Source of the DNA: Caulobacter segnis
Lineage (GTDB): Bacteria; Pseudomonadota; Alphaproteobacteria; Caulobacterales; Caulobacteraceae
DNA: 64,000 bases
Assembly (NCBI RefSeq): GCF_023935105.1
Contig: NZ_CP096040.1
Location: 1,550,001 to 1,614,000, forward strand
Direction: 5' to 3'
Below the pieces are notes generated by a model. It was not told the origin of the DNA. It ran no database searches and was given only the letters and a program-made list of their open reading frames with translations. The translations under genes and the position numbers were made by a program. Of this stretch, positions 31,658-55,052 are shown one piece after another (positions within the stretch are counted from its first letter, which is position 1; every line of letters begins with the position of its first letter).

Positions 31658-31674
31658 AGCGGCGCTTGTCTTAA

Positions 31675-31685
31675 TTGTACGATAA
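31675..31685. promoter_or_regulatory. FadR/GntR-like operator TTGTACGATAA
   Basis: It is identical to the site at 1038 and lies 51 bases before the GH53 start. The preceding GCGCTTGTCTTA recurs upstream of TBDR3 near 33098. Confidence 0.55.
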
Positions 31686-31736
31686 ATGATAGTCCCCGCC
31701 TTGCGACGCCTTCGAAGCGATCGCGACGGAGGAAAC

Positions 31737-33095
31737 ATGACCCCCCAGCGCTCGAACGCCCGCGCCTCGCTGATCGCCCTCTCGCTGGCGGCTTTGCTGG
31801 CCTCGCCCGTGCATGCAGCGCCCCAAACCTACCTGGGCGTGGACATCTCCTACGCCAACGAGATGGAAGACTGCGGAGCGGTCTATCGCGCGGGTGGCAA
31901 GACGGTCGAGCCCTACGCCTTCTTCAAGTCGGCCGGAGCCAATGTCGCGCGGATCCGGATCTGGAACGACCCGGACTGGACGCCGTATTCGAACCTGAAG
32001 GACGTCAAGCGCAGCATCGCCAAGGCCCGCAAGGCCGGCCTGCAAGTGCTGCTGGACTTCCACTATTCCGACGACTGGGCCGACGGCGACAAGCAGATCG
32101 CGCCCAGGGCCTGGGCCAGGCTGTCGACGCCGGATCAGGCCAAGGCGCTGTACGCCTTCACCCGGAACACCCTGGCCGAGCTGGATCGCGAGGGGCTGAT
32201 GCCCGACCTTGTCCAGGTGGGCAACGAGACCAACGGTGAGATCGTCTCCAGCCTGGCCAAGGCCAAGGAGCCGATCAATTGGGACCGCAACGCCTTGCTG
32301 TTCAACGCCGGGATCAAGGCCGTGCGCGACGCCGGCGCGGCCTCGGCGATCAAGCCGCGGATCATGCTGCACATCGCCCAGCCCGAGAACGTCGAGCCCT
32401 GGTTCGCGGCGGCGGAAAAGGCCGGCGTCACCGACTTCGACCTGATCGGGATCAGCTACTACAGCAAGTGGTCCAAGCGCTCGATGGCGCAGCTGGGCCA
32501 GACCATCAACCGCCTGCGTCACCTGTACTCGGCCGACGTGCTGGTGGTCGAGACGGCCTATCCGTTCACCAATGACGGCGCCGACAGCTCGCCCAACCTG
32601 TTGGGCGCCGACTCGCTGATCGCCGGCTATCCGGCCACCCCGGCGGGCCAGAAGAAGTACCTGACCGACCTGACCCAGCTGGTCTACGCCAATGGCGGGG
32701 TCGGGGTGGTCTATTGGGAGCCGGCCTGGCTCTCGACCAAGTGCAAGACCCGCTGGGGCCAGGGCTCCAATTGGGAGAACGCGGCCCTGTTCGACTTCAA
32801 GGGCCAGGCCCTGGAAGGCGTCGACTGGCTGAAGGCGCCCTACGTCATGCCCATGGACGTCACCTTCCGCGTCGTCGCCCACGGCGAGGCCGCGCGCTTC
32901 ATCGACGGCGACTTCCTGGGCGGGGTCGGTCCGCGTCCGATGACGCTGGAGAACGGCGCCTGGACCTATCGCACCCGGCTGATGCCCGGCGCTTCGGTGA
33001 CGGCCGCCACGGCGACCGACCCGGCGACCGTCGGCGACGCCCAGGCCGAGGCGGCGATCGTGGGGAAGGGCGCGACGGTCATTCCACTGAAATGA
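31737..33095 (+). CDS. GH53 endo-beta-1,4-galactanase, exported
   Basis: 452 residues. ATG 31737 follows GGAGGAAA and starts a Sec signal ending SPVHA. The GH53 barrel opens TYLGVDISYANEMEDCGAVY and contains ARIRIWNDP, LLDFHYSDDWADG, VGNETNGE (acid/base Glu164), SYYSKW and VVETAYPF (nucleophile Glu272), a full catalytic set. The family cuts internal beta-1,4-galactan bonds of pectic arabinogalactan I. After about residue 365 a beta-rich tail of roughly 85 residues (MDVTFRVVAHGEAARF onward) is not part of the usual barrel. It sits between an operator at 31675 and TBDR3, which probably imports its products. Confidence 0.92.
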   Translation: MTPQRSNARASLIALSLAALLASPVHAAPQTYLGVDISYANEMEDCGAVYRAGGKTVEPYAFFKSAGANVARIRIWNDPDWTPYSNLKDVKRSIAKARKAGLQVLLDFHYSDDWADGDKQIAPRAWARLSTPDQAKALYAFTRNTLAELDREGLMPDLVQVGNETNGEIVSSLAKAKEPINWDRNALLFNAGIKAVRDAGAASAIKPRIMLHIAQPENVEPWFAAAEKAGVTDFDLIGISYYSKWSKRSMAQLGQTINRLRHLYSADVLVVETAYPFTNDGADSSPNLLGADSLIAGYPATPAGQKKYLTDLTQLVYANGGVGVVYWEPAWLSTKCKTRWGQGSNWENAALFDFKGQALEGVDWLKAPYVMPMDVTFRVVAHGEAARFIDGDFLGGVGPRPMTLENGAWTYRTRLMPGASVTAATATDPATVGDAQAEAAIVGKGATVIPLK

Positions 33096-33114
33096 CAGCG
33101 CTTGTCTTATGCGA

Positions 33115-33126
33115 TTGATATGATAA
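33115..33126. promoter_or_regulatory. Weak FadR/GntR-like site TTGATATGATAA
   Basis: It resembles the sites at 1038 and 31675 (TTG…GATAAATG) but has one extra base in the centre. GCGCTTGTCTTA just upstream is shared with 31663. It lies 107 bases before TBDR3. Confidence 0.3.
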
Positions 33127-33233
33127 ATGGAACCCGTGGCGCTCGCGGGAGCGCCTGACGCGATTCCGCGTCGCCACAAGGCAGTCGCGCCATCCACGAA
33201 GCGCGACGCCGTTCTCATTCAGGGGGAACTCAC

Positions 33234-36021: not shown

Positions 36022-38508
36022 ATGCAGATCAATCGACGTCAGGCCCTGGCCGCCACGGCCGGCGCGGCGATGCTGGCCCGCTCGGGCGCCGCCGCCTCTC
36101 AAATCGCTCCAGTCGCCGCCATCGACCTAGGCCCGCGCGAACGGATCTCCCTGGACTTCGACTGGCGCTTCGCCCTGGGCCATGCCTCGGATCCCGACAA
36201 GGACTTCGGCTTCGGGGCCAACCAGCGCACCTACGCCAAGCAAGGGGCCAGCGCCCCCAGCTGGTGGGTGGCCGCCGCCGCCCAGAAGGACTTCGACGAC
36301 AGCACTTGGAAGCCGGTGACGCTGCCGCACGACTGGGCCGTCGAGCTGCCGTTCGCCAACAACCCCGACTACAAGCCCTCGGGCAAGCCCGACGACGAGG
36401 ATCTGCGGGCAGCCCATGGCTACAAGGCGCTGGGTCGCGAATTCCCTGAAAACAGCGTCGGCTGGTATCGCAAGGCCTTCACCCTGCCGGCCAGCGACGC
36501 CGGCAAGAGGGTGTCGATCGAGTTCGACGGCGCGTTCCGCGACGCCCTGGTGATCGTCAACGGCTACATCCTGGAGCGCGAGGACAGCGGCTATTCGCCG
36601 TTCCGCGTCGACATCACCGACATCGCCAATGTCGGCGGCGACAACTGGCTGACCGTCCGCGTCGACGCCAGCCTGGGCGAGGGCTGGTTCTACGAAGGGG
36701 CGGGCCTCTATCGCCACGTCTGGCTGGTGAAGACCGCGCCGGTCCACGTGCCGCAGTGGGGCGTCTTCGTCCGCGCCAAGGTCGACGGCACGGTCCAGAT
36801 CGACACCGACCTGGTCAACGAGTCCGATGCCAGCCAGGCGTTCGAGGTCTCGCACGCGGTGCTGGACGCCGCCGGCAAGCCCGTCCTGGCCGTCGCCCCC
36901 GCCGCCGACCGCATCCCCGCCTGGGAGCGCGTGAGCCTGTCGCAGACCGTGACCCTGTCCAACCCGATCCTGTGGTCGCTGGAAAACCCGCACCTGTACA
37001 CGCTGGTCACAGAGACCAAGGTCGGCGGCGCGGTGGTTGACCGGTTCGTCACCCGCTTTGGCGTCCGCGCGATCCGGTTCGACGCCCAGAAAGGCTTCTT
37101 CCTCAACGACAAGCCGGTGAAGCTGAAGGGCAGCTGCAACCATCAGGACCACGCGGGCGTCGGCGCGGCGATCCCGGACGCGCTGCAGGTCTGGCGGCTG
37201 GAGCAACTGAAGTCGATGGGCAACAACGCCTATCGCGCCTCGCACAATCCGCCGACGCCCGAGCTGCTGGACGCCTGCGACCGCCTGGGCATCCTGGTCA
37301 TCGACGAGACCCGCCGGATGTCCAGCGATCCCACCTCGATGGACGAGCTGGAGCGCCTGGTCCGCCGCGACCGCAACCACCCGTCCGTCATCCTGTGGTC
37401 GATCGGCAACGAGGAGCCGCAACAGGGCACGGCCCGCGGCGCCAAGGTCGCCACCACCATGAAGCGGTTGGTCAATCGCCTGGACCCGACGCGCCTAGTC
37501 ACCGCGGCCATGGACAACGGCTTCGGCGAGGGCATCAGCACCGTCATCGACGTGCAGGGTTTCAACTATCGCCACGAGAAGATGGACGACTTCCACGCCC
37601 GTTTCCCGAACACGCCGATCATCGGCACCGAGAGCGCCAGCGTGGTGACTACGCGCGGCGAGTACGCCCGCGACGAGGCCAAGAGCTACGTGCCCGCCTA
37701 CGACACCGACCATCCGTGGTGGGCGACGACGGCCGAGAAATGGTGGAGCCACGCCGCCGACCGACCGTGGATGGCGGGCGGCTTCATCTGGACCGGCTTC
37801 GACTATCGCGGCGAACCGACGCCGTTCAACCGCTGGCCCAGCATCAGCTCGCACTTCGGGGCCTTCGACACCTGCGGTTTTCCGAAGGACAACTATTACT
37901 ACTACCGCGCCTGGTGGCGGCCGGAGCCGCTGCTGCACCTGTTGCCGCACTGGAACTGGGAGGGCCGCGAGGGTCAGCCGATCGCGGTCTGGGCGCACAG
38001 CAACTGCGACAAGGTCGAGCTCTTCCTGAACGGCAAGAGCCAGGGCGTGCGCGCGGTTCAGCCCAACCAGCACGTCGAATGGTCAGTGCCTTACGCGCCC
38101 GGCGTGATCGAGGCGCACGGCTACAAGGGCGGCAAGGTGATCCTGCGCGAACGTCGCGAGACGGCCGGCGCGCCCGCCGCCCTGCGCCTGACCGCCGACC
38201 GTCCGAAGCTGAAGGCCGACGGCCAGGACGTGGCGATCCTCAAGGTCGAGGTGCTGGACGCCAAGGGCCGCCCGGTCCCGCGCGCCGACACCCTGGTGCG
38301 CTTCGAGATCTCGGGCGCGGCCGACCTGATCGGCGTCGGCAACGGCAATCCGACCAGCCACGAGCCCGACGTGGCGTCCCAGAGGAAGGCTTTCAACGGT
38401 CTGCTCCAGGCCATTGTCCGCACCCGACGGAATCAGGCCGGGCGGGCGAGGGTGGTCGCGGTGGCCGACGGCCTGAAGAGCGCCGGCTTGGATCTCACAT
38501 TCGGTTGA
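36022..38508 (+). CDS. Exported GH2 beta-galactosidase with C-terminal Ig-like domains
   Basis: 828 residues with a twin-arginine-like signal (NRRQALAATAGAAMLARSGAAA). The ribosome site GAGAGG lies just ahead of the ATG. The GH2 N-domain begins ERISLDFDWRFALG; the barrel contains LKGSCNHQDHAGVG, SIGNEEPQQG (acid/base Glu464) and IGTESASVVTT (nucleophile Glu537). From about residue 650 it has a DUF4982-like domain and a bacterial Ig-like domain (ALRLTADRPKLKADGQDVAI). This architecture differs from the LacZ-type enzyme at 4114, so the two beta-galactosidases probably act on different ends or linkages. It follows TBDR3 across a terminator and is probably expressed by read-through. Confidence 0.9.
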   Translation: MQINRRQALAATAGAAMLARSGAAASQIAPVAAIDLGPRERISLDFDWRFALGHASDPDKDFGFGANQRTYAKQGASAPSWWVAAAAQKDFDDSTWKPVTLPHDWAVELPFANNPDYKPSGKPDDEDLRAAHGYKALGREFPENSVGWYRKAFTLPASDAGKRVSIEFDGAFRDALVIVNGYILEREDSGYSPFRVDITDIANVGGDNWLTVRVDASLGEGWFYEGAGLYRHVWLVKTAPVHVPQWGVFVRAKVDGTVQIDTDLVNESDASQAFEVSHAVLDAAGKPVLAVAPAADRIPAWERVSLSQTVTLSNPILWSLENPHLYTLVTETKVGGAVVDRFVTRFGVRAIRFDAQKGFFLNDKPVKLKGSCNHQDHAGVGAAIPDALQVWRLEQLKSMGNNAYRASHNPPTPELLDACDRLGILVIDETRRMSSDPTSMDELERLVRRDRNHPSVILWSIGNEEPQQGTARGAKVATTMKRLVNRLDPTRLVTAAMDNGFGEGISTVIDVQGFNYRHEKMDDFHARFPNTPIIGTESASVVTTRGEYARDEAKSYVPAYDTDHPWWATTAEKWWSHAADRPWMAGGFIWTGFDYRGEPTPFNRWPSISSHFGAFDTCGFPKDNYYYYRAWWRPEPLLHLLPHWNWEGREGQPIAVWAHSNCDKVELFLNGKSQGVRAVQPNQHVEWSVPYAPGVIEAHGYKGGKVILRERRETAGAPAALRLTADRPKLKADGQDVAILKVEVLDAKGRPVPRADTLVRFEISGAADLIGVGNGNPTSHEPDVASQRKAFNGLLQAIVRTRRNQAGRARVVAVADGLKSAGLDLTFG

Positions 38509-38564
38509 TCCGGTTCTGACGCGCCGCACGCGTCATCGATGAAAATCCCGCGCGCGGGAGGGGC

Positions 38565-38600
38565 GGCGGCCAGCGTCAAGCTGGCCGCCGTCGTGCTTTT
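38565..38600 (+). terminator. Probable intrinsic terminator after GH2
   Basis: GGCGGCCAGC (38565-38574), loop GTCAA, perfect complement (38580-38589), then GTCGTGCTTTT. The T-run is short and a little distant. Confidence 0.65.
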
Positions 38601-38922: not shown

Positions 38923-41900
38923 ATGAAGCGGCTTCGTCGCTTGCACGCGTCTGCCTCTTGCGTCGCCATCACGGCGGCCATGTTCGCCAGCTCAGCGCTG
39001 GCCCAGCAGACTCAAGAGAATACCGCCGTCGACGAGGTCGTCGTCACCGGCATCCGCGCATCGCTCGAACGGTCGATCGAGATCAAGCGCAACAACAGCG
39101 GCGTGGTCGATGCGATCTCCGCCGAAGACATGGGCAAGTTCCCGGACACCAACCTCGCCGAATCCCTGCAGCGGATCACCGGCGTGTCGATCGACCGGAC
39201 GAACGGCGAAGGCTCGCAGGTCACGGTGCGGGGCTTTGGTCCCAGCTTCAACCTGGTGACCCTGAACGGCCGCACCATGCCCACCGCGCGGGTCGCCACG
39301 GTCGGCGGCGACCAGTCCTCGGACACCGCGGCCGGCACGAGCCGGTCGTTCGACTTCTCCAACCTCGCCTCGGAAGGCGTGTCCACGCTGGAGGTCTACA
39401 AGACCGGCCGCGCGGCTATCCCGACGGGCGGCATCGGCGCCACGATCAACGTCAAGACCCGCCGCCCGCTGGACGGCAAGCCGGGCCTGACGGGCAGCAT
39501 CGGGGTCAAGGGCGTCTACGACACCAGCATGGACAAGAAGGTCGATGATTTCGGCCACAAGTACACGCCGGAAGCTTCGGGCCTGATCAACTGGGTCGAC
39601 GACAGCGAGAAGTTCGGCGTCGCCCTGTTCGGCAGCTATCAAAAGCGCGACTACACCACGCGCGCGGCCACGGTGAACGACTGGAACATCAAGTCGTACG
39701 CCGACTTCATCGATCCGGCCAACGGCTTCGTCCGCAACGGCGGCGCCACCCAGATCACCAACGCCCCGTCGAACCCGAAGACCTGGGTCGCGATCCCCAA
39801 TGACACCCGCTATCACTTCGCTCAAGGCGAACGTGAGCGCGTCAACGCTCAGCTGACGGCGCAATTCCGCCCGATCGAGACCATGACGATCACGGCCGAC
39901 GCCCTGTACGCCCGCAACAAGGCGTTCGAGCGCCGCAACGACAGCACGAACTGGTTCAATCGCCCGTTCGACAAGGTGACCTTCGACAACAATCCGACGG
40001 TCGCCACGGCCGTCCTGCTGTCGGAGAACCTGAGCGGCACCAAGGATACGGGCTTCGAGCAGCAGTACCGCGGCAACGAGGATACGCTGAAGTCGTTCGG
40101 CCTGAACGGAACCTGGGATGTCTCGGACCGCTTCCACGTCACCGTGGACGGCCATATCTCGAAGGCGGACGCCAAGCCGAATTCGCCGAACGGGGCCAGC
40201 TCCACGGCGGTCTCGATCGCCGCTCCGATCTTGACGTCCCAGACCGTCAGCTACCAGGGCGCGGCCCCGGTCCCGAGCGTCACGTTCAACGACGCTCTGC
40301 GCGGCAACGGCAACGGCGTTCTAGACGTCGGCGACCTGGCCAGCCAGGTGGCTCGCACCTGGGCGCAACGCCAGCAGCAAAAGGTCAAGGAAATCCGGGC
40401 CGACTTCCGTTGGGACCTGGACGACAACGGCAGCAACATCCAGTTCGGTGGCGACTATCGCGACTCGAACATGCTGCAGACCAGCAAGTCGACCCAGCAA
40501 GACCTGGGCAGCTGGGGCATGTCCAGCCCGCAGGACGTCTCCAAGAACGCCGCCAACTTGGTGAAGGCGTTCTGCCTGGCCTGCCAGTTCAACGACTTCA
40601 ACCTGAACCAGTCGGGCGCGGGCCTGGTCTCGTTCCGCGCCAACGCCATCGACCTCTACAACGCCCTGTCGCCGGTCTATGTGGCCAAGGGCAACGCGGT
40701 CGGCGTCACGGGCCAGGAAAACAACCGCATCAAGGAAAAGATCGCTTCGGTCTATGGCCAGCTGGTCTGGAAGTCGGAGCTGGTCGGTCTGCCGACCGAA
40801 CTGGTCGCCGGCGTCCGTTACGAGACCACCAAGACCGACGCGACGTCGCTGGTCCTGGTGCCCAGCGCGATCATCTGGACGGCGGACAACGACTTCTCCC
40901 TGCAAACCAACGGCGTTTACCAACCGCTGACGGGCAAGGGTAAGTACAACAATCTGCTGCCGTCGATGGACTTCAAGGTCGAGTTCCGCGACGACCTGAC
41001 GGGGCGCTTCTCGTTCAGCCGGACGATCGCGCGCCCGGACTACAACAACCTGTTCGCCGCCCAGAGCGTCGGGACGCCGAACCGTCCGGTCGCCAACGGG
41101 GCCATCCCGCTGGGCGCCATCGGCAACACCGACCTGGATCCGCTGGTCTCCGACAACTTCGACGTCTCGCTGGAGTGGTACTACAAGCCCAGCAGCTACA
41201 TCTCGATCGGCTTCTTCGACAAGCGGGTGAGCAACTTCGTCGGCACCGGCACCAAGAGGTCGAGCATGTTCGACCTGCGTGACCCCAGCTCCGGCGCGCC
41301 GGGCACCCTGTCCGGCGACGCCAAGACCGCTCTGGCGGCCATCGGCGCGGGCGTCGGCGACGTGAACCTGTTCACGATGGCGGCCCTGATCAAGACGACC
41401 GGTTCGGTGTCGGCCGCCACGGCTCAGTTCCAGGCCAACCGCCTTCCCAGCGGTGACCTGAACCAAGCCTTCGTCGACCAAATCCTGGCGGCCGTGGACA
41501 TCGCGCCCACCAGCACCGATCCGCTGTTCAGCTTCCAGGTCTCGCAGCCGATCAACAAGACCGGCAACATCCACGGCTTCGAAATCGCCGGTCAGCACTT
41601 CTTCGGCGATACGGGCTTTGGTGTCGCTGGGGCCTATACGCTGGTGCGCGGCGACGTCGGCTTCGACAACGCCGCCGACCCGGGCCAGGACCAGTTCGCT
41701 CTGCTGGGCCTGTCGGACACGGCCAACGCCACGCTGATCTACGAGAAGTACGGCTTCTCGGCCCGCGTGGCCTACAACTGGCGGGACAAGTTCCTGCAAG
41801 CCACCAACCGCGGCGGCTCGCGCAACCCCGTCAACGTCGCGCCGTTCGGCCAGCTGGACATCAACATCAGCTACGATGTCACCCCGAAGCTGGCCCTCTC

Positions 41901-42021
41901 CTTCGAAGGCATCAACCTGACCAAGGAGCATCTGCGCACCTATGCCCGCGACGAGAAGCAGGTCTGGTTCGCGCAAGAACTGGACCGGCGCTTCCTGCTC
42001 GGCGCCCGCTACCGCTTCTAG
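38923..42021 (+). CDS. TonB-dependent receptor of a SapC/cupin/halogenase cluster (TBDR4)
   Basis: 1032 residues, the largest receptor here, from ATG 38923 with AGGGGGAA upstream. The signal peptide ends SSALAQQ. The TonB-box region is VDEVVVTGIRASLERSIEIK; the plug has MGKFPDTNLAESLQRITGVSIDR, GSQVTVRGFGPSFNLVTLNG and TGGIGATINVKTRRPL, the Xanthomonas/Caulobacter family form. The barrel ends LGARYRF. Receptors of this subtype commonly precede SapC, cupin and tryptophan-halogenase-like genes. The substrate is unknown; LacI-type operator candidates upstream point to a sugar. A terminator lies between it and the SapC gene. Confidence 0.9.
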   Translation: MKRLRRLHASASCVAITAAMFASSALAQQTQENTAVDEVVVTGIRASLERSIEIKRNNSGVVDAISAEDMGKFPDTNLAESLQRITGVSIDRTNGEGSQVTVRGFGPSFNLVTLNGRTMPTARVATVGGDQSSDTAAGTSRSFDFSNLASEGVSTLEVYKTGRAAIPTGGIGATINVKTRRPLDGKPGLTGSIGVKGVYDTSMDKKVDDFGHKYTPEASGLINWVDDSEKFGVALFGSYQKRDYTTRAATVNDWNIKSYADFIDPANGFVRNGGATQITNAPSNPKTWVAIPNDTRYHFAQGERERVNAQLTAQFRPIETMTITADALYARNKAFERRNDSTNWFNRPFDKVTFDNNPTVATAVLLSENLSGTKDTGFEQQYRGNEDTLKSFGLNGTWDVSDRFHVTVDGHISKADAKPNSPNGASSTAVSIAAPILTSQTVSYQGAAPVPSVTFNDALRGNGNGVLDVGDLASQVARTWAQRQQQKVKEIRADFRWDLDDNGSNIQFGGDYRDSNMLQTSKSTQQDLGSWGMSSPQDVSKNAANLVKAFCLACQFNDFNLNQSGAGLVSFRANAIDLYNALSPVYVAKGNAVGVTGQENNRIKEKIASVYGQLVWKSELVGLPTELVAGVRYETTKTDATSLVLVPSAIIWTADNDFSLQTNGVYQPLTGKGKYNNLLPSMDFKVEFRDDLTGRFSFSRTIARPDYNNLFAAQSVGTPNRPVANGAIPLGAIGNTDLDPLVSDNFDVSLEWYYKPSSYISIGFFDKRVSNFVGTGTKRSSMFDLRDPSSGAPGTLSGDAKTALAAIGAGVGDVNLFTMAALIKTTGSVSAATAQFQANRLPSGDLNQAFVDQILAAVDIAPTSTDPLFSFQVSQPINKTGNIHGFEIAGQHFFGDTGFGVAGAYTLVRGDVGFDNAADPGQDQFALLGLSDTANATLIYEKYGFSARVAYNWRDKFLQATNRGGSRNPVNVAPFGQLDINISYDVTPKLALSFEGINLTKEHLRTYARDEKQVWFAQELDRRFLLGARYRF

Positions 42022-42048
42022 GACCGGAAGTCTCCTAGGATCGAAGGA

Positions 42049-42084
42049 GGGACCGTCGCGCTTGCGGCGGTCCCTTTCTTCCTT
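42049..42084 (+). terminator. Intrinsic terminator after TBDR4
   Basis: GGGACCGTCGC / GCGGCGGTCCC (one G-U pair, loop GCTT), followed by TTTCTTCCTT. The SapC ATG is only 33 bases beyond. Confidence 0.85.
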
Positions 42085-42117
42085 TGAAGTGCCCGTGCCC
42101 AGCGTGAGTAGGCCGAC

Positions 42118-42840
42118 ATGAACCGAGTGCTTCTGAACAACGTCGACCATGCCGACCTGCGCGTGATCGCCGGCCATGGCGTCGCCTATGGCGATGCGAT
42201 CAACCAGACCCTGGTGCTGCCCACCGAGTTCGAGGCGGTGCAGCGTGAATATCCGATCCTGATCCGCAAGGACGCCGCCGGCGCCTATCAGGCCGTGGCG
42301 CTGCTGGGCCTGGATCGCGACGAGAACCTGTTCCTGGACCAGAGCGGCTGGAACGCCCGCTACGTGCCCGCTGTCCAGCGCCGCGGCCCGTTCTCGATCG
42401 CCCTGCAGCGCGATGACCGGGGCGGCGAACCGCGGCCGATGATCCATGTCGACCTCGACCATCCGCGCATCAGCTGCGACCAGGGCGAGCGCCTGTTCCT
42501 GCCGGCGGGCGGCAACTCGCCGTACCTGCAGGGAATCAATCAGGCCCTCGGACAGATCCACGAGGGACTGGAAGTGGCGGGGCCGATGTTCGCCTTCTTC
42601 GAGGAATTGGGCCTGATCGAACCGGTCGACATCGAGATCAAGCTGGACGACCAGACTACCTACGACCTGCCCGACGTCTTCACCCTGGCGCCCGATCGCC
42701 TGGCGGCCGTGACGGGCGAGGACCTCGAGAAGCTGCACCAGTCGGGCCTGCTGCGCGCCGCGCACTGGATCATCTCGTCGATGGGCAACATCCAGGAGCT
42801 GATCGCCCGCAAGACCCGCAAGCAGGCGGCCCTGGCATGA
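42118..42840 (+). CDS. SapC-like protein
   Basis: 240 residues, no signal peptide or membrane helix. The sequence LNNVDHADLRV, LPTEFEAVQREYPILIRKD and ALLGLDRDENLFLD matches the SapC-like family, named after a Campylobacter S-layer gene product whose biochemical role remains unclear. It is followed by the cupin gene with a four-base overlap (ATGA) and is therefore translationally coupled to it. Across proteobacteria this gene travels with a large TBDR, a cupin_8 protein and a tryptophan-halogenase-like flavoprotein, as here. A direct link to the S-layer locus further right should not be assumed from the name. Confidence 0.82.
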   Translation: MNRVLLNNVDHADLRVIAGHGVAYGDAINQTLVLPTEFEAVQREYPILIRKDAAGAYQAVALLGLDRDENLFLDQSGWNARYVPAVQRRGPFSIALQRDDRGGEPRPMIHVDLDHPRISCDQGERLFLPAGGNSPYLQGINQALGQIHEGLEVAGPMFAFFEELGLIEPVDIEIKLDDQTTYDLPDVFTLAPDRLAAVTGEDLEKLHQSGLLRAAHWIISSMGNIQELIARKTRKQAALA

Positions 42841-43871
42841 CTGCCCTGGTCGCCCGCCGCACGCTGGAAACCACGGTGGCGTCGCCCGCCGAGATCCCGT
42901 TCGACGCGGTGCTGGCCGGCCAGACGCCGATGCTGTTCAAGGGCCTGGTCCGCGACTGGCCGCTGGTCCAGGCGGGGCTTCGCTCGGGCCAGGCGGCTCG
43001 CGACTACATCCGCGCCCACGACCAGGGCGGCCGGGTGGTGGGCTACACCGGCGACCCGGCTATCAAGGGCCGCTTCTTCTACGACGAGACCCGCACGGCC
43101 ATGAACTTCAAGGCCGAGCGCGCGCCGCTGGAAGCCTTCCTGCGCCGCCTCGAAGAGGTCGAGGGCGCCAACGACGCGCCGTCGGTCTATGTCGGCTCCG
43201 CGGATCTCGACGCCTATTTCCCCAGCCTGAAGGCGGCCAACGACCTGGGTGTCGGGGCCGAGGTGTTCGGTCCCGAGCCGCCGATGGCCGGGATCTGGAT
43301 CGGCAATCGCACCGTCGCGGCCGCCCACTGGGACATGTCCAACAACATCGCCGTCTGCGCCGTGGGCCGGCGGCGCTTCACCCTGTTCCCGCCGGACCAG
43401 GTGGCCAATCTCTATCCCGGTCCGCTGGAGCCGACGCCCGGCGGCCAGGTGGTCAGCCTGGTCGATTTCGAGACGCCCGACTTCGACGCTCACCCCGGTT
43501 TCCGCGAGGCGCTGAAGAACGCTCAAGTGGCCGAGATGGAGCCTGGCGACCTGCTGGTCTACCCGGCCCTGTGGTGGCATCAGGTCGAGGCGCTGGAGCC
43601 GTTCAACGTGCTGGTGAACTACTGGTGGAACGCCGCGCCGGCCCATGCCGACACGCCGATGAACACCCTGCTACACGGCCTGCTCAGCCTGCGCGACCGG
43701 CCCGACTTCGAGAAGCAGGGCTGGAAGGCGCTGTTCGACTACTACGTGTTCGGCCCGGCCGATCGCGCCGGAGCGCACATGCCCGAGGCGGCGCGTGGCG
43801 CGCTGGGACCGATGGACGAAATGAAAGCCAGGCGGCTGCGGGCCTATCTGCTCGACCGGCTGAATCGATAG
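42837..43871 (+). CDS. Cupin_8/JmjC-like putative 2-oxoglutarate Fe(II) dioxygenase
   Basis: 344 residues. The fold resembles factor-inhibiting-HIF-type hydroxylases: PMLFKGLVRDWPLVQ at the N-terminus, AHWDMSNNIAV (His164, Asp166), the typical GRRRFTLFPPDQVANLYPGP segment and LWWHQVEAL (His248). His-x-Asp plus a distal His is a full iron-binding triad, so activity is plausible. The target could be a protein side chain or a small molecule; nothing in the sequence decides this. The start overlaps the SapC stop and the halogenase-like gene starts 19 bases after its stop, so the three form one operon. Confidence 0.82.
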   Translation: MTALVARRTLETTVASPAEIPFDAVLAGQTPMLFKGLVRDWPLVQAGLRSGQAARDYIRAHDQGGRVVGYTGDPAIKGRFFYDETRTAMNFKAERAPLEAFLRRLEEVEGANDAPSVYVGSADLDAYFPSLKAANDLGVGAEVFGPEPPMAGIWIGNRTVAAAHWDMSNNIAVCAVGRRRFTLFPPDQVANLYPGPLEPTPGGQVVSLVDFETPDFDAHPGFREALKNAQVAEMEPGDLLVYPALWWHQVEALEPFNVLVNYWWNAAPAHADTPMNTLLHGLLSLRDRPDFEKQGWKALFDYYVFGPADRAGAHMPEAARGALGPMDEMKARRLRAYLLDRLNR

Positions 43872-43890
43872 GGAAAAGGGGAGGGACGCC

Positions 43891-45390
43891 ATGACCCAGC
43901 AGACGATCCGCAAGGTGGTGATCGCGGGCGGCGGCACCGCCGGCTGGATGGCCGCCGCGGCCCTGGCCCGTCAGCTGGGCCCGCTGCTGGACATCACCCT
44001 GGTCGAGTCCGAGGACATCGGCACGGTCGGGGTGGGCGAGTCGACCATCCCCACGGCGCGGACCTTCAACGCCCTGCTCGGCATCGACGAAGCCGCGTTC
44101 ATGCGCGCCACCCAGGCGACCTTCAAGCTGGGCATCTCGTTCGAGCATTGGGGCGAGGTCGGCGACCGCTACATCCACTCGTTCGGCCAGGTCGGAAAAT
44201 CCACCTGGATGGGCGGTTTCCATCACTTCTGGATGCAGGCCCGCGAGCAGGGCTTCGGCGGCGAGCTGGGCGACTACTGCCTCGAGCTGAAGGCGGCCGA
44301 GCAGAACCGGTTCTACACCGGCGAGAACGGTCCGCTGAACTATGCCTATCACCTGGACGCCGGCCTCTACGGCCGCTTCCTGCGCGGCATGGCCGAGGCC
44401 GACGGCGTGCGCCGCGTCGAGGGCAAGATCGCCAGCGTGCGCCAGCGCGGCGAGGACGGCTTTGTCGAGGCCTTGGTCATGGAGAACGGCGACGTTGTCG
44501 AGGGCGACCTCTTCGTCGACTGCACCGGCTTCCGGGGTCTGCTGATCGAACAGACCTTGAAGGCGGGATTCGAGGATTGGGGCCATTGGCTGCCGACCAA
44601 CAGCGCGTTGGCCGTCCAGACCCGCTCGACCGAGCCGGCCGCGCCCTACACGCGGGCGATCGCCCACCAGGCTGGCTGGCGCTGGAAGATCCCGCTGCAG
44701 CATCGCGTCGGCAACGGCTTGGTCTATTGCAGCGAATGCCTGTCGGACGACGAGGCCCACGCCCAGCTACAGGGCGAGATCGAGGGCGAGACCCTGATCC
44801 CGCCACGTCTGATCCGCTATCGCACCGGCCGCCGCCGCAAGACCTGGGACAAGAACGTCGTCGCCCTGGGCCTGGCCAGTGGCTTCGTCGAGCCGCTGGA
44901 ATCGACCTCGATCCACCTGATCATGATCGGGGTGACGCGACTGATGCAGCTGTTCCCGTTCGCCGGCGTCAGCCAGGCCGTTGTCGACCGCTATAACCGT
45001 CAGGCCGATGACGAGTTGGAGAAGATCCGCGACTTCATCATCCTGCACTACAAGGCGACCGAGCGGGCCGACAGCCCGTTCTGGGACCGCGTGCGGACGA
45101 TGGAGATCCCCGACAGCCTGGCCCAGCGCATCGCGCTGTTCCGCCAGGGCGCCCAGGTCTACCAGGCGCCCGGAGAGCTGTTCCAGGTCGACTCCTGGCT
45201 GCAGGTGCTACTGGGCCAGCGCGTGACGCCCCAAGCCTATCACCACATGGGCCGGCTGATGCCGCCGCAGCAGCTGAAGCAGGCGCTGGACGACCTGAAG
45301 CGCAACATCGCCGGGGCGGTCGCGCGGCTGCCGCAGCATCAGGCTTTCCTGGACGGCTACTGCGCGCCGCCGGTCAGCAAGAGCGCCTAG
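43891..45390 (+). CDS. Flavin-dependent tryptophan halogenase-like protein
   Basis: 499 residues from ATG 43891 with GGGGAGGGA upstream. The FAD-binding motif is IAGGGTAGWMAAAALAR, and GVGESTIPT follows. The lysine essential in PrnA/RebH has an exact counterpart, Lys79 in TFKLGI. The halogenase signature WxWxIP is present (GWRWKIPL, residues 262-269). The catalytic parts are therefore intact, but members that accompany TBDR, SapC and cupin genes have no known product and may not use free tryptophan. No partner flavin reductase is adjacent. The stop overlaps that of the convergent glycosyltransferase. Confidence 0.87.
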   Translation: MTQQTIRKVVIAGGGTAGWMAAAALARQLGPLLDITLVESEDIGTVGVGESTIPTARTFNALLGIDEAAFMRATQATFKLGISFEHWGEVGDRYIHSFGQVGKSTWMGGFHHFWMQAREQGFGGELGDYCLELKAAEQNRFYTGENGPLNYAYHLDAGLYGRFLRGMAEADGVRRVEGKIASVRQRGEDGFVEALVMENGDVVEGDLFVDCTGFRGLLIEQTLKAGFEDWGHWLPTNSALAVQTRSTEPAAPYTRAIAHQAGWRWKIPLQHRVGNGLVYCSECLSDDEAHAQLQGEIEGETLIPPRLIRYRTGRRRKTWDKNVVALGLASGFVEPLESTSIHLIMIGVTRLMQLFPFAGVSQAVVDRYNRQADDELEKIRDFIILHYKATERADSPFWDRVRTMEIPDSLAQRIALFRQGAQVYQAPGELFQVDSWLQVLLGQRVTPQAYHHMGRLMPPQQLKQALDDLKRNIAGAVARLPQHQAFLDGYCAPPVSKSA

Positions 45391-50027: not shown

Positions 50028-50054
50028 TTGTCGACGTATGACGTTTGCTCTATA
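50028..50054 (+). promoter_or_regulatory. rsaA promoter (-35 TTGTCGA, -10 GCTCTATA)
   Basis: TTGTCGA (50028-50034) and GCTCTATA (50047-50054) are 12 bases apart, matching the Caulobacter housekeeping form TTGaCgS-N11-14-GCTANAWC. The leader to the ATG is about 60 bases and includes GGGAGA just before the start. Confidence 0.8.
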
Positions 50055-50122
50055 GCCGTCGCTGCTCCCATGCGCACCACTCGGTCGCAGGGGGTGTGGG
50101 ATTTTTTTGGGAGACTATCCTC

Positions 50123-53017
50123 ATGGCCTATACTACGGCCCAACTGGTTGCCGCGTACACCAACGCCAACCTCGGCAAGGCGCCTGATGCCGCCACCACC
50201 CTGACGCTTGACGCGTACGCGACGCAGTCGCAGACCGGCGGTATCTCGGACACCACCGCTCTGACCAACACCCTGAAGCTGCTCAACAGCACGACCGCCG
50301 TCGCTGTCGAGACCTATCAGTTCTTCACCGGTCGCGCTCCGTCGGCCGCTGGTCTTTCCTTCCTGGTCAACTCGACCACGAACACCAGCGACCTGAACGA
50401 CGCCTACTATTCGAAGTTCTCGGCGGAAAACCGCTTCATCAATTTCTCGATCAACCTGGCCACCGGTCAGGGTGAAGGCGCCGCCGCTTTCGCCGCCGCC
50501 TATGGTTCGGTGTCGGTCGCGCAGACCGTCGCGACCGCCTATGACAAGATCATCGGCAATGCGACCGCCGCCGCCGCCGGCGTCGACGTCGCCGCCGCCG
50601 TGGCCTTCCTGAGCCGCGCCGACAACATCACCTACCTGACCAACTTCGTGAAGGCGAACACCGGTCTGACCGCCGCCGCCGACATCGATCTGGCCGTCAA
50701 GGCCGCTCTGATCGGCGAAATCCTGAACGTCGCTACGGTTTCGGGCCTCGGCGCCTACGCCGGCGCGACCACCGCCCTGATCACCGACCTGTCGGACGGC
50801 ACGCTGTCGACCGACTCGGCCGCCGGCGTGAACATCCTGACGGCCTATCCGGCCGCGGGCGCCACGGGCACCACCTACACGCTGAAGGCCGGTCCGGACA
50901 CGATCGTCGGCACCAGCGCCAACGATACCTTCAACGCCCTGAACATCGACGCCAACGGCGCTGCCGCCACCACCTTCTCGGACTTCGATTCGATCGACGG
51001 CGGCAACGGCGTCGACACGCTGAACGTCTACACCAAGGCTGGCAGCAACGGTGTGACGCTTCCTGCCAACCTGACGGTCAAGAACGTTGAAAAGGTGTTC
51101 CTGTTCAACGCGACCGCTACCTCGGGCAGCAACCTGGCTGATGCTTCGATCTATCAAGGCGTGCAGCAGCTGTGGCAAGTCGGCGCTGCGACGGAGACCA
51201 AGGGTGTGGCGAACGGCGTTGTCGCTGGCTTCAAGGATCTGACCACCGGCGCCACGGTGACGACGAACTCTACCGCTACGTCGGCCGCGATCGCTTTCGA
51301 CAACCAAAAGGAAAGCCAAACCTTCATCGTCGACGGTTCGGCCAACAAAGCGCTGGCTGGCGTTACGGTGACCGGCACCGTGGCCGACAATGACGGCGAT
51401 GGCGTGGTCAACACCAATGTCACGCTGAAGGTTGGTAAGGACGTTGCTGCGGTTTCGCTCAACTCGACCGCTGGCGTCACGCTGACGGTTGACGACAGCG
51501 CCAGCACGACCACCAAGGTCAGCAGCGTTGATCTCTCGGCCAGCACGGGCGCTATCACCTTCGTGGGCGACACCGATGTCCGCACCATCACGGGCGGCGC
51601 TGGCGCTGACACGCTGACGATCGCGACCACCACGGTGAAGGACAACACGGCTACCACCGTTGACGAAACCGTCACCGCCACCCTGAACTCGGGCGCGGGC
51701 GCCGACGATATCACGATCAGCACCACCGGCACGGGCGTGACCACTGTCACCACCGGCGCGGGCGATGATACCGTGAACGTCACGTCGCGCAGCGACGTCC
51801 TGAAGGTCGACCTGGGCGATGGTTCGGACACCTTCACCTCGGGCGTGGCGATCACCGCCGCCGACACCATCGACGCGGGCGCTGGCAGCGATACGCTGTC
51901 CCTGCAACTGGTTGGTTCGGCGAACGTCATCGCGTTCAAGAACTTTGACGTGTTCGACGTGAACGGTCTCGACCACAACCTTGATCTCGATATCCTGGCC
52001 ACCAACAACACGGTCTCGGAAATCGTGGGTTCGGGTACCCTGGGCGCCGCCGCTGCGACGCTGTCGAACCTGGGCGCTGGCGTGAGCTTCCGCGCTACGG
52101 CCGATATGGGCACGACCGACGTTCTGTCGCTGACCCAGAAGACCGGCGGCGCGCTGACGGTCACCCTGGACGCCGACCAGACCGGCACCGACACCGCTGC
52201 CGACGATACGGCTGGCGTGGCCGTGACGGCGACCAACGCCACCTCGGTGACCGCCGTGTTCGATACCTCGTATCTGAACAAGGCTGGCGCTGTGACGGGT
52301 GAAACCGCCGCTACGGACAACGTTTCGACGATCGCTCTGACGACCGCCGCTGCGACCGCCGTGACCGTGGTTTCGGGTGGCGCGAACGCCCAGAACTTCA
52401 TCACCATCGCTGACGGCGCGACGGCGGCTAACGACAAGCTGGCGACGATCACCGTCACCGGCGCGAGCCACCTGGACCTGACGGCCAGTGCTCTGACCAA
52501 GCTGGCCACGATCGATGCTTCGGCTTCGACCGGCGGTCTGTCGACCTCGCTGGCCGGCGTGGCGAGCGGCGGCACGATCAAGCTCGGCTCGGGCGCTGAC
52601 CTGATTACGGTCACCAGCGCTTCGACCACGGGCGACATCGAGTCGATCCAGAACTTCGAAAAGGCGATCGCCGCCGCGGTTGGCACCAATGCCGCCGCCA
52701 AGGCCGCCGCCATCCTGGATACCGACCTGCTGTCGTTCACGGGCGCGGTCAATGCTGATGGCGCCATCACCGGCGGCACCATCGCCAAGGGCGTTCTGAC
52801 GTTCACCGGCGCTGGTCCGGCCACGCTGACGGACGCTATCGGCCTTGCCGACGCGGGCGTCACCACCGCCGGCAACACGGTGGTGTTCCAGTACCTGACC
52901 GACACCTACGTGTTCGTCCAAGGCGGCGCTACCGACACCGTCGTGAAGCTGACGGGCGTCACCGGCGTGACCAACTACGTCGAAGACGGTACGACGAACC
53001 ACTTCTTCGTCGTCTAA
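50123..53017 (+). CDS. rsaA: S-layer protein RsaA
   Basis: 964 residues from ATG 50123 ([20 protein letters not shown]) after GGGAGA. There is no cleaved signal peptide. The first roughly 230 residues closely follow, from memory, C. crescentus RsaA, including the part that binds LPS O-antigen. Beyond that the sequence differs greatly and is shorter than the 1026-residue C. crescentus protein. RTX-type calcium-binding repeats (GGxGxDxLx-like) appear near residues 293, 491, 522, 545, 566, 586 and 822. The C-terminal part should hold the uncleaved type I secretion signal. It assembles into the two-dimensional crystalline surface layer, exported by RsaD, RsaE and RsaF. Codon use favours GCT/GCC and ACC, as expected for a very highly expressed gene. 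Confidence 0.96.
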
Positions 53018-53064
53018 TAACGACGAGCGACCGCTTCGGCGGTTGCAACGAAGACTGACTAAGG

Positions 53065-53097
53065 CCGCCCCGGAGGAATACTCCGGGGCGGTTTCTT
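53065..53097 (+). terminator. Intrinsic terminator after rsaA
   Basis: A perfect 11-base-pair stem (CCGCCCCGGAG, loop GAATA, complement) followed by TTTCTT. A smaller CCGC-TTCG-GCGG hairpin precedes it. From here to rsaD there is no clear promoter, so rsaD/rsaE may depend on read-through. Confidence 0.92.
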
Positions 53098-53224
53098 ATG
53101 TGCACGGCGTGGATTGGGGGCGTGCTTGCGGTGAACCCAGTCCTGTGATTTAGCGCCAGAGGCTGGCTGCTTCCTTTCCGCCACAATTTCGTGGTCGAGA
53201 CGCAACCTAAGTTGTTACTGTATA

Positions 53225-53246
53225 CGTCTCGCCATATGGCGAGACG
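53225..53246. repeat. 22-base perfect palindrome before rsaD
   Basis: CGTCTCGCCAT followed immediately by its exact complement ATGGCGAGACG, ending 15 bases before the rsaD ATG. It may be a dimeric-regulator site or, in RNA, a stable hairpin next to the rsaD ribosome site. It has no T-run, so it is not a terminator. Confidence 0.75.
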
Positions 53247-53261
53247 CTTCGAAGGCTCCCG

Positions 53262-54989
53262 ATGATCTTCAACCGCTCCGGCGCGAAGCCCACCATTCTC
53301 GATCGCGCGGTCGAGATCATGAAGCCGGCGGTGATCACCGCCATGGTCTTCAGCTTCTTCATCAACGTTCTGGCCCTGGTCAGTCCGATGTACATGCTGC
53401 AGGTCTATGACCGCGTGCTCTCCAGCCGGAACGTCTCGACGCTGGTCGTGCTGACCCTGATCTGCGTCTTCCTGTTCATCATCTACGGCCTACTGGAGGC
53501 GCTTAGGACCCAGGTTCTGGTGCGCGGCGGCCTGAAGTTCGACGGGGTGGCGCGCGACCCGATCTTCAGGGCGGTGCTGGAATCGACTCTGACCCGCAAG
53601 GGCCAGGGCGGCCAGGCGTTCCGTGACATGGACCAGGTGCGCGAGTTTCTGGCCGGCGGGCTGATCGCGTTCTGTGACGCGCCATGGACGCCGGTATTCA
53701 TCCTGGTCTCCTGGATGTTGCACCCCTATTTCGGCATCCTGGCCATCGTCAGCTGCTTCATCATCTTCGGCCTAGCGGTAATGAACGATCGCGCGACCAA
53801 GAACCCGATTCAGATGGCCACCGCGGCCTCGATCGCGGCCCAGAACGACGCCAGTTCCACCCTGCGCAACGCCGAGGTCATGAAGGCCATGGGCATGTGG
53901 GGCGGCCTGCAGCAGCGCTGGCGCGTGCGTCGGGATGAGCAGGTGGCCTGGCAGGCCGGCGCCAGCGACGCCGGCGGCGCGGTGATGTCGGGCATCAAGG
54001 TGTTCCGCCAGGTCGTCCAGACCCTGATCCTCGGTGGCGGCGCCTATCTGGCCATCCAGGGCAAGATCTCGGCCGGCTCGATGATTGCCGGCTCGATCCT
54101 GGTCGGCCGCGCCCTGGCGCCGATCGAGGGCGCCGTGGGCCAGTGGAAGAACTATCTCGGCGCCCGCGGGGCGTGGGATCGCTTGCAAGGCATGCTGCGC
54201 GAACAGAAGAACGCCGATGACCACATGCCGCTGCCCGAGCCGCGGGGCGTGCTGTCGGCGGAGGCCGCCTCGATCCTGCCGCCCGGCGCCCAGGTTCCGA
54301 CCATGCGCCAGGCCAGCTTCCGCATCGACGCCGGCACCGCCGTGGCCCTGGTCGGTCCCAGCGCCGCCGGCAAGTCCTCGCTGCTGCGCGGTATCGTCGG
54401 CGTTTGGCCGTGCTCGGCGGGGGTGATCCGCCTGGACGGTTACGACATCAAGCAGTGGGACCCCGAAAAGCTGGGCCGCCACATCGGCTATCTGCCGCAG
54501 GACATCGAGCTGTTCCAAGGCACCGTCGCCCAGAATATCGCCCGCTTCACCGAGTACGAGTCGCAGGAAGTCATCGAAGCCGCCACGCTGGCAGGTGTCC
54601 ACGAGATGATCCAGGGCCTGCCCATGGGCTATGACACCCCGATCGGCGAGGGTGGGGCTTCATTGTCCGGCGGCCAGCGCCAGCGTCTGGCTCTCGCCCG
54701 GTCGGTGTTCCGCATGCCGGCTCTGTTGGTGCTGGACGAGCCGAACGCCAGCCTGGACCAGACGGGCGAGGTCGCTCTGATGGAAGCCATGAGCCGCCTG
54801 AAGGCGGCCAAGCGTACTGTGGTCTTCGCTACCCACAAGGTGAACCTGCTGACCCAGGCCGACTACATCATGGTCATCAACCAGGGGGTCATCGCCGATT
54901 TCGGCGAGCGTGACGCCATGCTGGCGAAGCTCACAGGCGCCGCGCCGCCGGCCGCGCCGACTCCGCCGCCGGTCCAGCGCGTTCAGTAG
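53262..54989 (+). CDS. rsaD: S-layer type I secretion ABC transporter RsaD
   Basis: 575 residues. The N-terminal half carries about six membrane helices (VITAMVFSFFINVLALVSPM, VVLTLICVFLFIIYGLLEAL, HPYFGILAIVSCFIIFGLAV). The nucleotide-binding domain has Walker A GPSAAGKSS (Lys371), YLPQDIELF, the signature LSGGQRQR and Walker B LLVLDEPNAS. It belongs to the PrtD/AprD family of protein exporters, which lack an N-terminal peptidase domain. It energises export of RsaA through RsaE and RsaF. It is followed by rsaE after 63 bases. The C-terminus ends in a Pro/Ala-rich tail. Confidence 0.95.
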   Translation: MIFNRSGAKPTILDRAVEIMKPAVITAMVFSFFINVLALVSPMYMLQVYDRVLSSRNVSTLVVLTLICVFLFIIYGLLEALRTQVLVRGGLKFDGVARDPIFRAVLESTLTRKGQGGQAFRDMDQVREFLAGGLIAFCDAPWTPVFILVSWMLHPYFGILAIVSCFIIFGLAVMNDRATKNPIQMATAASIAAQNDASSTLRNAEVMKAMGMWGGLQQRWRVRRDEQVAWQAGASDAGGAVMSGIKVFRQVVQTLILGGGAYLAIQGKISAGSMIAGSILVGRALAPIEGAVGQWKNYLGARGAWDRLQGMLREQKNADDHMPLPEPRGVLSAEAASILPPGAQVPTMRQASFRIDAGTAVALVGPSAAGKSSLLRGIVGVWPCSAGVIRLDGYDIKQWDPEKLGRHIGYLPQDIELFQGTVAQNIARFTEYESQEVIEAATLAGVHEMIQGLPMGYDTPIGEGGASLSGGQRQRLALARSVFRMPALLVLDEPNASLDQTGEVALMEAMSRLKAAKRTVVFATHKVNLLTQADYIMVINQGVIADFGERDAMLAKLTGAAPPAAPTPPPVQRVQ

Positions 54990-55052
54990 ACGCCCGCTCC
55001 GCCCACCGTTTCCAAGGCCGTCTTCGCGACGCGCCCATCAGGCTGAAAACAG

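What the first reader, a model, noticed from the sequence alone, without database searches (positions are those of the whole stretch)
38923..45390. TBDR-SapC-cupin-halogenase cluster with intact catalytic residues
The cupin has a complete His164/Asp166/His248 triad. The halogenase has Lys79 and WxWxIP in place, but no flavin reductase or biosynthetic genes are nearby. An operon of a receptor, a coupled SapC, a putative hydroxylase and a putative halogenase has no established function. One idea is oxidative or halogen modification of the receptor or its cargo.
Basis: partly seen in the sequence, partly recalled or inferred. Interest (0 to 1): 0.7.

Follow-up and report, generated by a model that had tools for sequence, protein, structure and literature searches.

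The report
Conserved receptor–hydroxylase–halogenase gene cassette
An outer-membrane nutrient receptor is inherited, across two classes of bacteria, together with three interior proteins, two of which look like working oxygen- and halogen-adding enzymes; what they modify is unknown, and the receptor protein itself is a live candidate.

Summary
Window 38923-45390 encodes a TIGR01782 TonB-dependent receptor, SapC (PF07277), an FIH-like Cupin_8 protein and a halogenase of the Xcc4156/BrvH group, with the stated catalytic residues in place.

It is not a local oddity. Of 80 cupin loci from named genomes, 69 carry TBDR-SapC-cupin-halogenase in that order, from Caulobacterales to Xanthomonadales and Alteromonadales. 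Of 95 cupin-linked receptors, 94 fall in one clade. All 91 cupin-linked halogenases compared keep Lys79. Crystallised Xcc4156, of unknown native substrate, is most like this class.

Corrections: SapC is tightly coupled to the cupin, not the receptor; a terminator-like hairpin separates receptor and SapC (50 of 84 junctions). Flavin reductases are encoded elsewhere.

Outside the cassette, 14 of 49 called upstream neighbours of SapC are surface or export genes, and ShlB-type exporters are enriched nearby. I therefore favour, at 0.4, action on the receptor polypeptide over processing of its cargo (0.33). No test here shows modification, and several gave it no support. I found no description of the cassette in the held library.

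The parts
38923..42021 (+). TonB-dependent receptor, TIGR01782, 1032 aa; member of the cupin-linked receptor clade; clade-specific, nearly invariant W344, W531, W652 (and W953) placed on the extracellular side of the model by strand order
42046..42077 (+). terminator-like hairpin between receptor and SapC (14 pairs by the scan, then CTTCCTTT)
   Evidence: such a feature at 50 of 84 TBDR-SapC junctions against 1 of 840 in-gene windows and 3 of 420 shuffles
42118..42840 (+). SapC family protein (PF07277), 240 aa, no signal peptide apparent by eye; confident AlphaFold2 model (pLDDT 95.7) without a match in the PDB
42837..43871 (+). Cupin_8 / FIH-like Fe(II)/2-oxoglutarate oxygenase candidate, 344 aa; H164-D166-H248; R179 where FIH has Lys214 (FIH numbering recalled, alignment)
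43891..45390 (+). flavin-dependent halogenase, PF04820, Xcc4156/BrvH group, 499 aa; K79, WRWKIP 263-268, E337
36022..38508 (+). GH2 beta-galactosidase GalA upstream, separated from the receptor by 414 bp that hold a terminator-like hairpin (38562-38592); context, not part of the cassette

Best explanation
The four genes are a conserved receptor-plus-partners cassette. SHOWN from sequence: a dedicated clade of TIGR01782 receptors travels with three proteins that have no apparent signal peptide: SapC, an FIH-like Fe(II)/2-oxoglutarate oxygenase candidate and a flavin-dependent halogenase of the open-site Xcc4156/BrvH group, with conserved catalytic residues where these are known. INFERRED: the three work in the cytoplasm on the newly made receptor before it is exported. 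SapC recognises the surface-protein chain or holds it in an export-competent state; the cupin hydroxylates and the halogenase modifies side chains that end up in the receptor's extracellular vestibule, tuning ligand binding or protecting exposed aromatic residues. FADH2 would come from reductases encoded elsewhere. The hairpin after the receptor gene would keep the partners substoichiometric, as suits catalysts. The unit being real and functional: about 0.97. The receptor chain being the target: about 0.4.
For: (1) Order TBDR-SapC-cupin-halogenase in 69 of 80 cupin loci; among 109 regions labelled all 17 that hold the cupin also hold TBDR, SapC and halogenase. (2) 94 of 95 cupin-linked receptors in one clade with 4 others. 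(3) In this genome a TBDR gene lies in the same cluster at 7 of 8 halogenase loci, once divergently, although the receptors differ; that is easier to explain if the receptor itself is the partner than if seven different ligands all need halogenation. (4) Outside the cassette SapC genes can lie beside large surface or exported proteins of unrelated routes: 6 TBDRs of another (ZnuD/heme-like) type, 3 ShlB-type transporters, 2 RTX proteins, 2 two-partner-secretion exoproteins, 1 autotransporter, together 14 of 49 called upstream neighbours; 11 ShlB-type genes lie within 10 kb at 10 of 74 loci against 0.37 expected. (5) Xcc4156 and BrvH have open sites and a peptide substrate was proposed by the structural authors (PMC7336383, section 13 read). 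(6) Precedent: QhpG, a flavoprotein structurally like FAD-dependent halogenases, dihydroxylates a Trp of a co-encoded protein (PMC7876137, passages); the window protein has a weak match to its model. (7) W344 and W531 are kept in 95 of 95 and W652 in 94 of 95 cassette receptors, on extracellular loops or strand tops by model topology.
Against: No modification was observed. Trp content does not differ between other halogenase-linked and unlinked receptors (1.30% and 1.31%, p = 0.92). Four receptors whose cassettes lack the halogenase (L182, L185, L187, L193) keep W344, W531 and W652, neutral if the loss is recent. N656, the best Asn candidate, is Thr in four receptors whose cassettes keep the cupin (L129, L141, L144, L156). 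Clade-specific positions are not denser outside the membrane than in barrel or plug (0.034, 0.041, 0.069 per residue). Invariant extracellular Trp is also what a conserved glycan or aromatic ligand site would give. The SapC of the cassette and most solitary SapC are different subfamilies, and 35 of the 49 upstream neighbours called for solitary SapC are not surface-export genes; for 27 of 76 loci no upstream neighbour was called.
Confidence: 0.4

Rival explanations
1. Ligand processing: the receptor imports one class of aromatic or aryl-glycoside compound; glycosidases nearby remove sugar, and the cytosolic cupin and halogenase oxidise or halogenate the aglycone for detoxification, catabolism or conversion to a secreted halogenated product.
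For: One receptor clade with conserved vestibule Trps and plug positions suggests one ligand class. GH3 genes lie in the flanks of 20 of 81 loci, 13 of 34 in the genomes with a counted background against 0.75 expected; GH2 GalA in the window. BrvH, a relative, brominates indole at low rate (PMC5945002, passages), and Xcc4156 and BrvH are reported active on indole and its derivatives, not free Trp (PMC7336383).
Against: Glycosidases are usual near TBDRs of this family (CUT loci), so the enrichment need not be cassette-specific; I ran no control on other TBDR loci. The only recurrent neighbours found (in 5 or more loci) that I could name were GH3, DUF6445, an FGGY kinase and an isomerase-like protein. 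SapC genes also neighbour RTX, two-partner and autotransporter proteins, which are not importers. Halogenation as a catabolic step is not established (own knowledge).
Confidence: 0.33
2. The enzymes act on another cytosolic or envelope protein or small molecule (TonB-system component, regulator, LPS or S-layer precursor), and the receptor is linked only because it is expressed under the same condition.
For: In Caulobacter the cassette is followed by glycosyltransferase and FkbM genes (found in 4 loci) and, in the window and L159, by an RsaA-like S-layer gene; SapC is named after an S-layer locus (recalled).
Against: Matches to those neighbours were found in only 4 of the 82 loci compared (some loci are cut by contig ends), whereas the receptor is kept nearly throughout.
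Confidence: 0.17
3. One or both enzymes have lost their textbook activity and serve as chaperone, sensor or peroxide source.
For: Activity measured for BrvH is low and native substrates of BrvH and Xcc4156 are unknown. Lys79-less paralogues exist in tandem arrays elsewhere.
Against: K79 and E337 in 91 of 91 cupin-linked halogenases; H/D/H in 108 of 109 cupins.
Confidence: 0.07
4. No functional link: neighbouring genes without a common task.
For: The four parts belong to families found elsewhere alone.
Against: Order conserved in 69 of 80 loci over two classes.
Confidence: 0.03

Closest known systems
Xcc4156 (PDB 6y1w), flavin-dependent halogenase of Xanthomonas campestris
   Same: best PDB match of the window halogenase (603.6 bits, E 2.5e-180); its six best matches among the halogenases compared here are all cupin-linked, up to 68% identity
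   Different: its structure paper never uses the word receptor (term search) and treats the enzyme alone (section 13); I did not look at its own locus
BrvH (PDB 6frl)
   Same: same open-site group; nearest here to this genome's own TBDR-linked tandem halogenase L019_24, 65%; its paper reports a second halogenase gene beside it (passages)
   Different: its nearest match belongs with halogenases that have a TBDR but no cupin or SapC beside them
FIH (factor inhibiting HIF) and JMJD5, protein hydroxylases
   Same: best solved relatives of the cupin, profile E 8e-29 over positions 21-263; HxD...H and the equivalent of FIH Asn205 kept
   Different: Arg179 where FIH has Lys214 (108 of 109; FIH numbering recalled); bacterial, operon-bound to a receptor; substrate unknown
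QhpG / LodB / GoxB flavoproteins needed for Trp-derived cofactors of a partner protein
   Same: FAD-dependent proteins required to modify a peptidyl Trp of a partner, shown for QhpG (PMC7876137, passages)
   Different: window protein scores 34.6 against the QhpG cut-off of 240 and 19.6 against the GoxB cut-off of 400: not a member
CUT loci (TBDR-centred carbohydrate utilisation loci) of Xanthomonas and Caulobacter
   Same: TonB-dependent receptor beside glycoside hydrolase genes
   Different: halogenase, SapC, cupin and hydroxylase do not occur in that paper's main text (PMC1790865, term search); no carbohydrate gene lies inside the cassette

Membership tests
Flavin-dependent halogenase, PF04820, Xcc4156/BrvH group | PF04820 profile above cut-off | tested here: met
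   655 bits against 21
Flavin-dependent halogenase, PF04820, Xcc4156/BrvH group | GxGxxG, catalytic Lys, WxWxIP | tested here: met
   GGGTAG at 13, K79, WRWKIP at 263; K79 in 91 of 91 cupin-linked members, the Pro of the motif in 80 of 91
Flavin-dependent halogenase, PF04820, Xcc4156/BrvH group | Gly at second position of the halide site (proposed motif Fx.Px.Sx.G); a proposal, not a defining feature: BrvH has Ser and Xcc4156 Asn there | tested here: not met
   Ser340 in the window, Ser in 85 of 91 cupin-linked members
Flavin-dependent halogenase, PF04820, Xcc4156/BrvH group | halogenating activity | not testable with these tools
   reported by others for Xcc4156 and BrvH
Tryptophan (free amino acid) halogenase | long substrate-binding loop closing over free Trp | not tested
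   relatives Xcc4156 and BrvH lack it; not filed as a free-Trp halogenase
Fe(II)/2-oxoglutarate oxygenase of the FIH/Cupin_8 type | metal triad HxD...H | tested here: met
   H164, D166, H248; 108 of 109
Fe(II)/2-oxoglutarate oxygenase of the FIH/Cupin_8 type | basic residue for the 2-oxoglutarate carboxylate | tested here: inconclusive
   Arg179 where FIH has Lys214; activity not testable
SapC, PF07277 | profile match over full length | tested here: met
   216 bits against 28.9, positions 1-220 of 220
TIGR01782 TonB-dependent receptor | profile score above 310 with plug and barrel domains | tested here: met
   698.9 bits; PF07715 and PF00593
QhpG/GoxB protein-Trp maturase | NCBIfam curated cut-offs | tested here: not met
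   34.6 of 240; 19.6 of 400
Carbohydrate utilisation (CUT) locus | TBDR with co-located carbohydrate genes induced by the sugar | tested here: inconclusive
   GalA lies upstream, GH3 enriched in flanks; induction not testable

The most novel reading that the evidence does not exclude
A dedicated protein-maturation system for an outer-membrane receptor: SapC presents the receptor precursor in the cytoplasm to an FIH-type hydroxylase and to a protein halogenase, which place hydroxyl and bromo/chloro groups on clade-specific vestibule residues (W344, W531, W652 and others). It would give the orphan Xcc4156/BrvH halogenases their native substrate: the TonB-dependent receptor that their class is encoded beside.
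Probability: 0.2. Interest if true: 0.92.

Novelty: new variant of a known kind. Interest (0 to 1): 0.6.

Why it matters
Biochemists have crystallised BrvH and Xcc4156 without knowing what they act on. The gene neighbourhoods give a concrete, testable partner: in this genome 7 of 8 halogenase loci include a TBDR gene, and the Xcc4156-like class comes with one receptor clade plus an FIH-like hydroxylase and SapC. If the receptor is the target, this would be operon-encoded halogenation or hydroxylation of a bacterial surface protein. If the cargo is the target, the cassette marks a ligand class shared by bacteria as different as Caulobacter, Sphingomonas, Xanthomonas and Microbulbifer. Either result would also help to give a role to SapC, whose model matched no solved fold.

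Tried and rejected
Chance neighbourhood: rejected by conserved order and one receptor clade.

Loss of candidate Trp when the halogenase is lost: looked for, not found. Bulk Trp enrichment in halogenase-linked receptors: none; in the same call Asp (7.6% against 6.5%) and Phe are higher and Tyr lower in linked receptors, which I cannot interpret because the receptors are related. N656 as an obligatory cupin target: contradicted by four receptors. Trp at the four positions in other halogenase-linked against unlinked receptors: W344 6 of 33 against 1 of 34 (p = 0.054), W531 14 against 5 (p = 0.015), W652 1 against 0 (p = 0.49), W953 17 against 9 (p = 0.046); four tests on related sequences, so little weight. 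Concentration of clade-specific positions outside the membrane: 17 of 39 conserved positions against 24 of 100 elsewhere, p = 0.037; p = 0.26 against barrel alone; no higher density per residue.

Rows dropped before counts: receptors under 700 aa and duplicates (166 kept); two unlabelled receptors of the cassette clade (L229_1, L237_24) were left out of the unlinked group, and L240_20 out of the linked group in the residue test. Sequences are related, so counts such as 91 of 91 are not independent; 90 of these 91 differ. 'Solitary' SapC means no halogenase found in the fetched region. Start codons in my scripts are the first possible ones, so overlaps between genes are upper bounds. The GH3 counts rest on one sequence cluster whose representative was checked by Pfam. 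ShlB distances were counted by eye; one search used 76 loci, but the genomes of two (L137, L138) were not, so repeats the figure for 74.

Literature: searches found no paper that joins SapC or a cupin with a halogenase and TonB receptors; they were seen as listings, with term searches in some hits. The library holds open-licence papers alone, so a subscription paper may describe the cassette.

Full report
What is there. The window holds, on the + strand, a TIGR01782 TonB-dependent receptor (38923-42021), a SapC family protein (42118-42840), a Cupin_8 protein (42837-43871) and a PF04820 halogenase (43891-45390). The three downstream proteins begin without an apparent signal peptide (read from sequence by eye), so they are taken as cytoplasmic. 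SapC and cupin overlap by 4 bp and the cupin ends 19 bp before the halogenase, but the receptor is separated from SapC by 96 bp with a strong terminator-like hairpin.

How general it is. PF07277 occurs in 56 of 289 sampled Alphaproteobacteria and 138 of 398 genomes of the phylum sample. Annotating 100 regions around SapC genes plus 8 regions of the own genome and the window showed two settings: 76 solitary SapC genes with no halogenase in the region and a smaller set linked to TBDR and halogenase; all 17 regions that hold the cupin also hold TBDR, SapC and halogenase. A search of named genomes with an alignment of 17 cupins kept the best 80 loci, from Caulobacter, Phenylobacterium, Asticcacaulis, Hyphomonas, Maricaulis and many Sphingomonas to Xanthomonas, Stenotrophomonas, Luteimonas, Rheinheimera, Microbulbifer and Teredinibacter. 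In 69 of 80 the order on one strand is TBDR-SapC-cupin-halogenase, in a few with an extra TBDR or halogenase or with a gene split between frames; the other 11 are 5 without a halogenase in the cassette, 2 without an adjacent SapC, 1 with the halogenase between receptor and SapC only, and 3 at or near contig ends. This sample was chosen by the cupin, so it says what the cupin travels with, not how often receptors have a cupin.

Receptor. A FastTree tree of 166 receptors puts 94 of 95 cupin-linked receptors in one clade with 4 others (support 97); of these four, L222 is near a contig start with a rearranged cassette, L237 is a split gene, L240 has SapC and halogenase without the cupin, and L229_1 lies at the edge of its region. 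The clade has its own invariant residues: W344 and W531 in 95 of 95, W652 and W953 in 94 of 95, N656 in 90 of 95. This is what a conserved ligand site gives, and also where a modification could tune binding.

Halogenase. Its best solved relatives are Xcc4156 (6y1w), 9luq and BrvH (6frl). Among the halogenases compared here Xcc4156 is nearest to cupin-linked ones (six best matches, up to 68% identity), 9luq to TBDR-linked ones without a cupin (58%), and BrvH to this genome's own TBDR-halogenase-halogenase locus (65%). The structural paper on Xcc4156 (section 13 read) reports an open substrate site, no action on free tryptophan and a proposed peptide substrate; native substrates are unknown. All 91 cupin-linked halogenases keep K79, both Trp of WxWxIP and E337. 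The second halide-site position, Gly in most of these enzymes, is Ser here, as in BrvH. In this genome halogenase genes lie at 8 loci and a TBDR gene belongs to 7 of the clusters, once divergently; the genome has about 41 TIGR01782 receptors (39 single matches above the cut-off and two more in two pieces). A flavin reductase need not be adjacent: three PF01613 genes are encoded elsewhere.

Cupin. Best solved relatives are FIH and JMJD5, both protein hydroxylases. The metal triad and the equivalent of FIH Asn205 are kept in 108 of 109, and Arg stands where FIH has Lys214 (FIH numbers recalled).

SapC. No solved relative by sequence at E below 0.01 (best 0.022). The model is confident (pLDDT 95.7) and matches nothing in the PDB by Foldseek or VIA-align 2, which does not prove a new fold. 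Its settings outside the cassette are the most useful clue. Of 76 solitary loci 49 had a called gene directly upstream on the same strand; 14 of these 49 are surface or export genes: 6 TBDRs, one of them beside a SapC gene of this genome, 3 ShlB-type transporters, 2 two-partner exoproteins, 2 RTX proteins and 1 autotransporter; 35 are not. The three of the six TBDRs tested against NCBIfam match ZnuD (zinc piracy) and heme receptors best, all below the curated cut-offs, so they are of another type than the cassette receptor. ShlB-type genes number about 67 in 70 genomes (278 Mb), yet 11 lie within 10 kb of a solitary SapC at 10 of 74 loci, 0.37 expected. RTX, two-partner and autotransporter proteins are not importers; what they share with TBDRs is being large surface proteins that pass from the cytoplasm to the outside. 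That moves me from cargo towards receptor as the target, without settling it.

Expression. At 50 of 84 TBDR-SapC junctions a hairpin followed by a T-rich run fits my terminator rule, against 1 of 840 windows inside the same receptor genes and 3 of 420 shuffles. A partial terminator would make receptor in excess over its partners, as expected if these are catalysts; it could also mean separate transcription.

Context. GH3 genes lie in the flanks of 20 of 81 loci (representative checked); in 34 genomes with counted background, 13 against 0.75 expected. The window has GH2 GalA upstream. This suits a receptor for a glycoside, and the cargo hypothesis, but glycosidases are usual near such receptors and I ran no control on other TBDR loci.

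Tests that did not support receptor modification: no excess of Trp in halogenase-linked receptors; candidate Trps kept where the halogenase is gone; N656 replaced by Thr in four receptors whose cupin is kept. Thus the mechanism remains inference. I put receptor-chain modification or assistance at 0.4, cargo processing at 0.33, another target at 0.17, non-catalytic roles at 0.07 and no link at 0.03.

Known or new. The parts are known families. I found no paper in the held library that describes the cassette, and three halogenase papers that I searched by term do not use the word receptor. I call it a new variant of a known kind: a receptor-centred gene cluster with an unexplained pair of tailoring enzymes.

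Noticed in passing
window 42046-42077 and 50 of 84 TBDR-SapC junctions: Recurrent terminator-like hairpin between receptor gene and its partner genes (50 of 84 against 1 of 840 control windows), suggesting built-in stoichiometry control.
   Followed up: partly
L024 (own genome, about C1:4334600-4340560) and L219, L248, L249, L250, L256: Tandem arrays of halogenases that include a diverged paralogue without Lys79 (Arg in L248, L250, L256; Asn in L219; Ser in L249; that part does not align in L024); in the own genome one further halogenase of the array is split between two frames.
   Followed up: partly
This looks like an unusual export locus with its own SecA-like protein.
   Followed up: no
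window 50045-56360: RsaA-like S-layer gene with ABC and HlyD export genes lies about 4.7 kb downstream of the cassette; an RsaA-like gene also follows it in Caulobacter sp. 602-1 (L159), and a partial match lies at the region edge in L120.
   Followed up: partly
L217, L218, L219, L222, L223, L226, L228, L229, L230, L196: DUF6445 (PF20043) genes recur within the fetched flanks of the cassette, mostly directly after the halogenase and mostly in Gammaproteobacteria; a further accessory of unknown function (one representative checked by Pfam).
   Followed up: no
window 31671-33218: 515 aa ORF on the minus strand without a Pfam or NCBIfam match at 0.001, opposite an overlapping plus-strand ORF; may not be a gene.
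   Followed up: no
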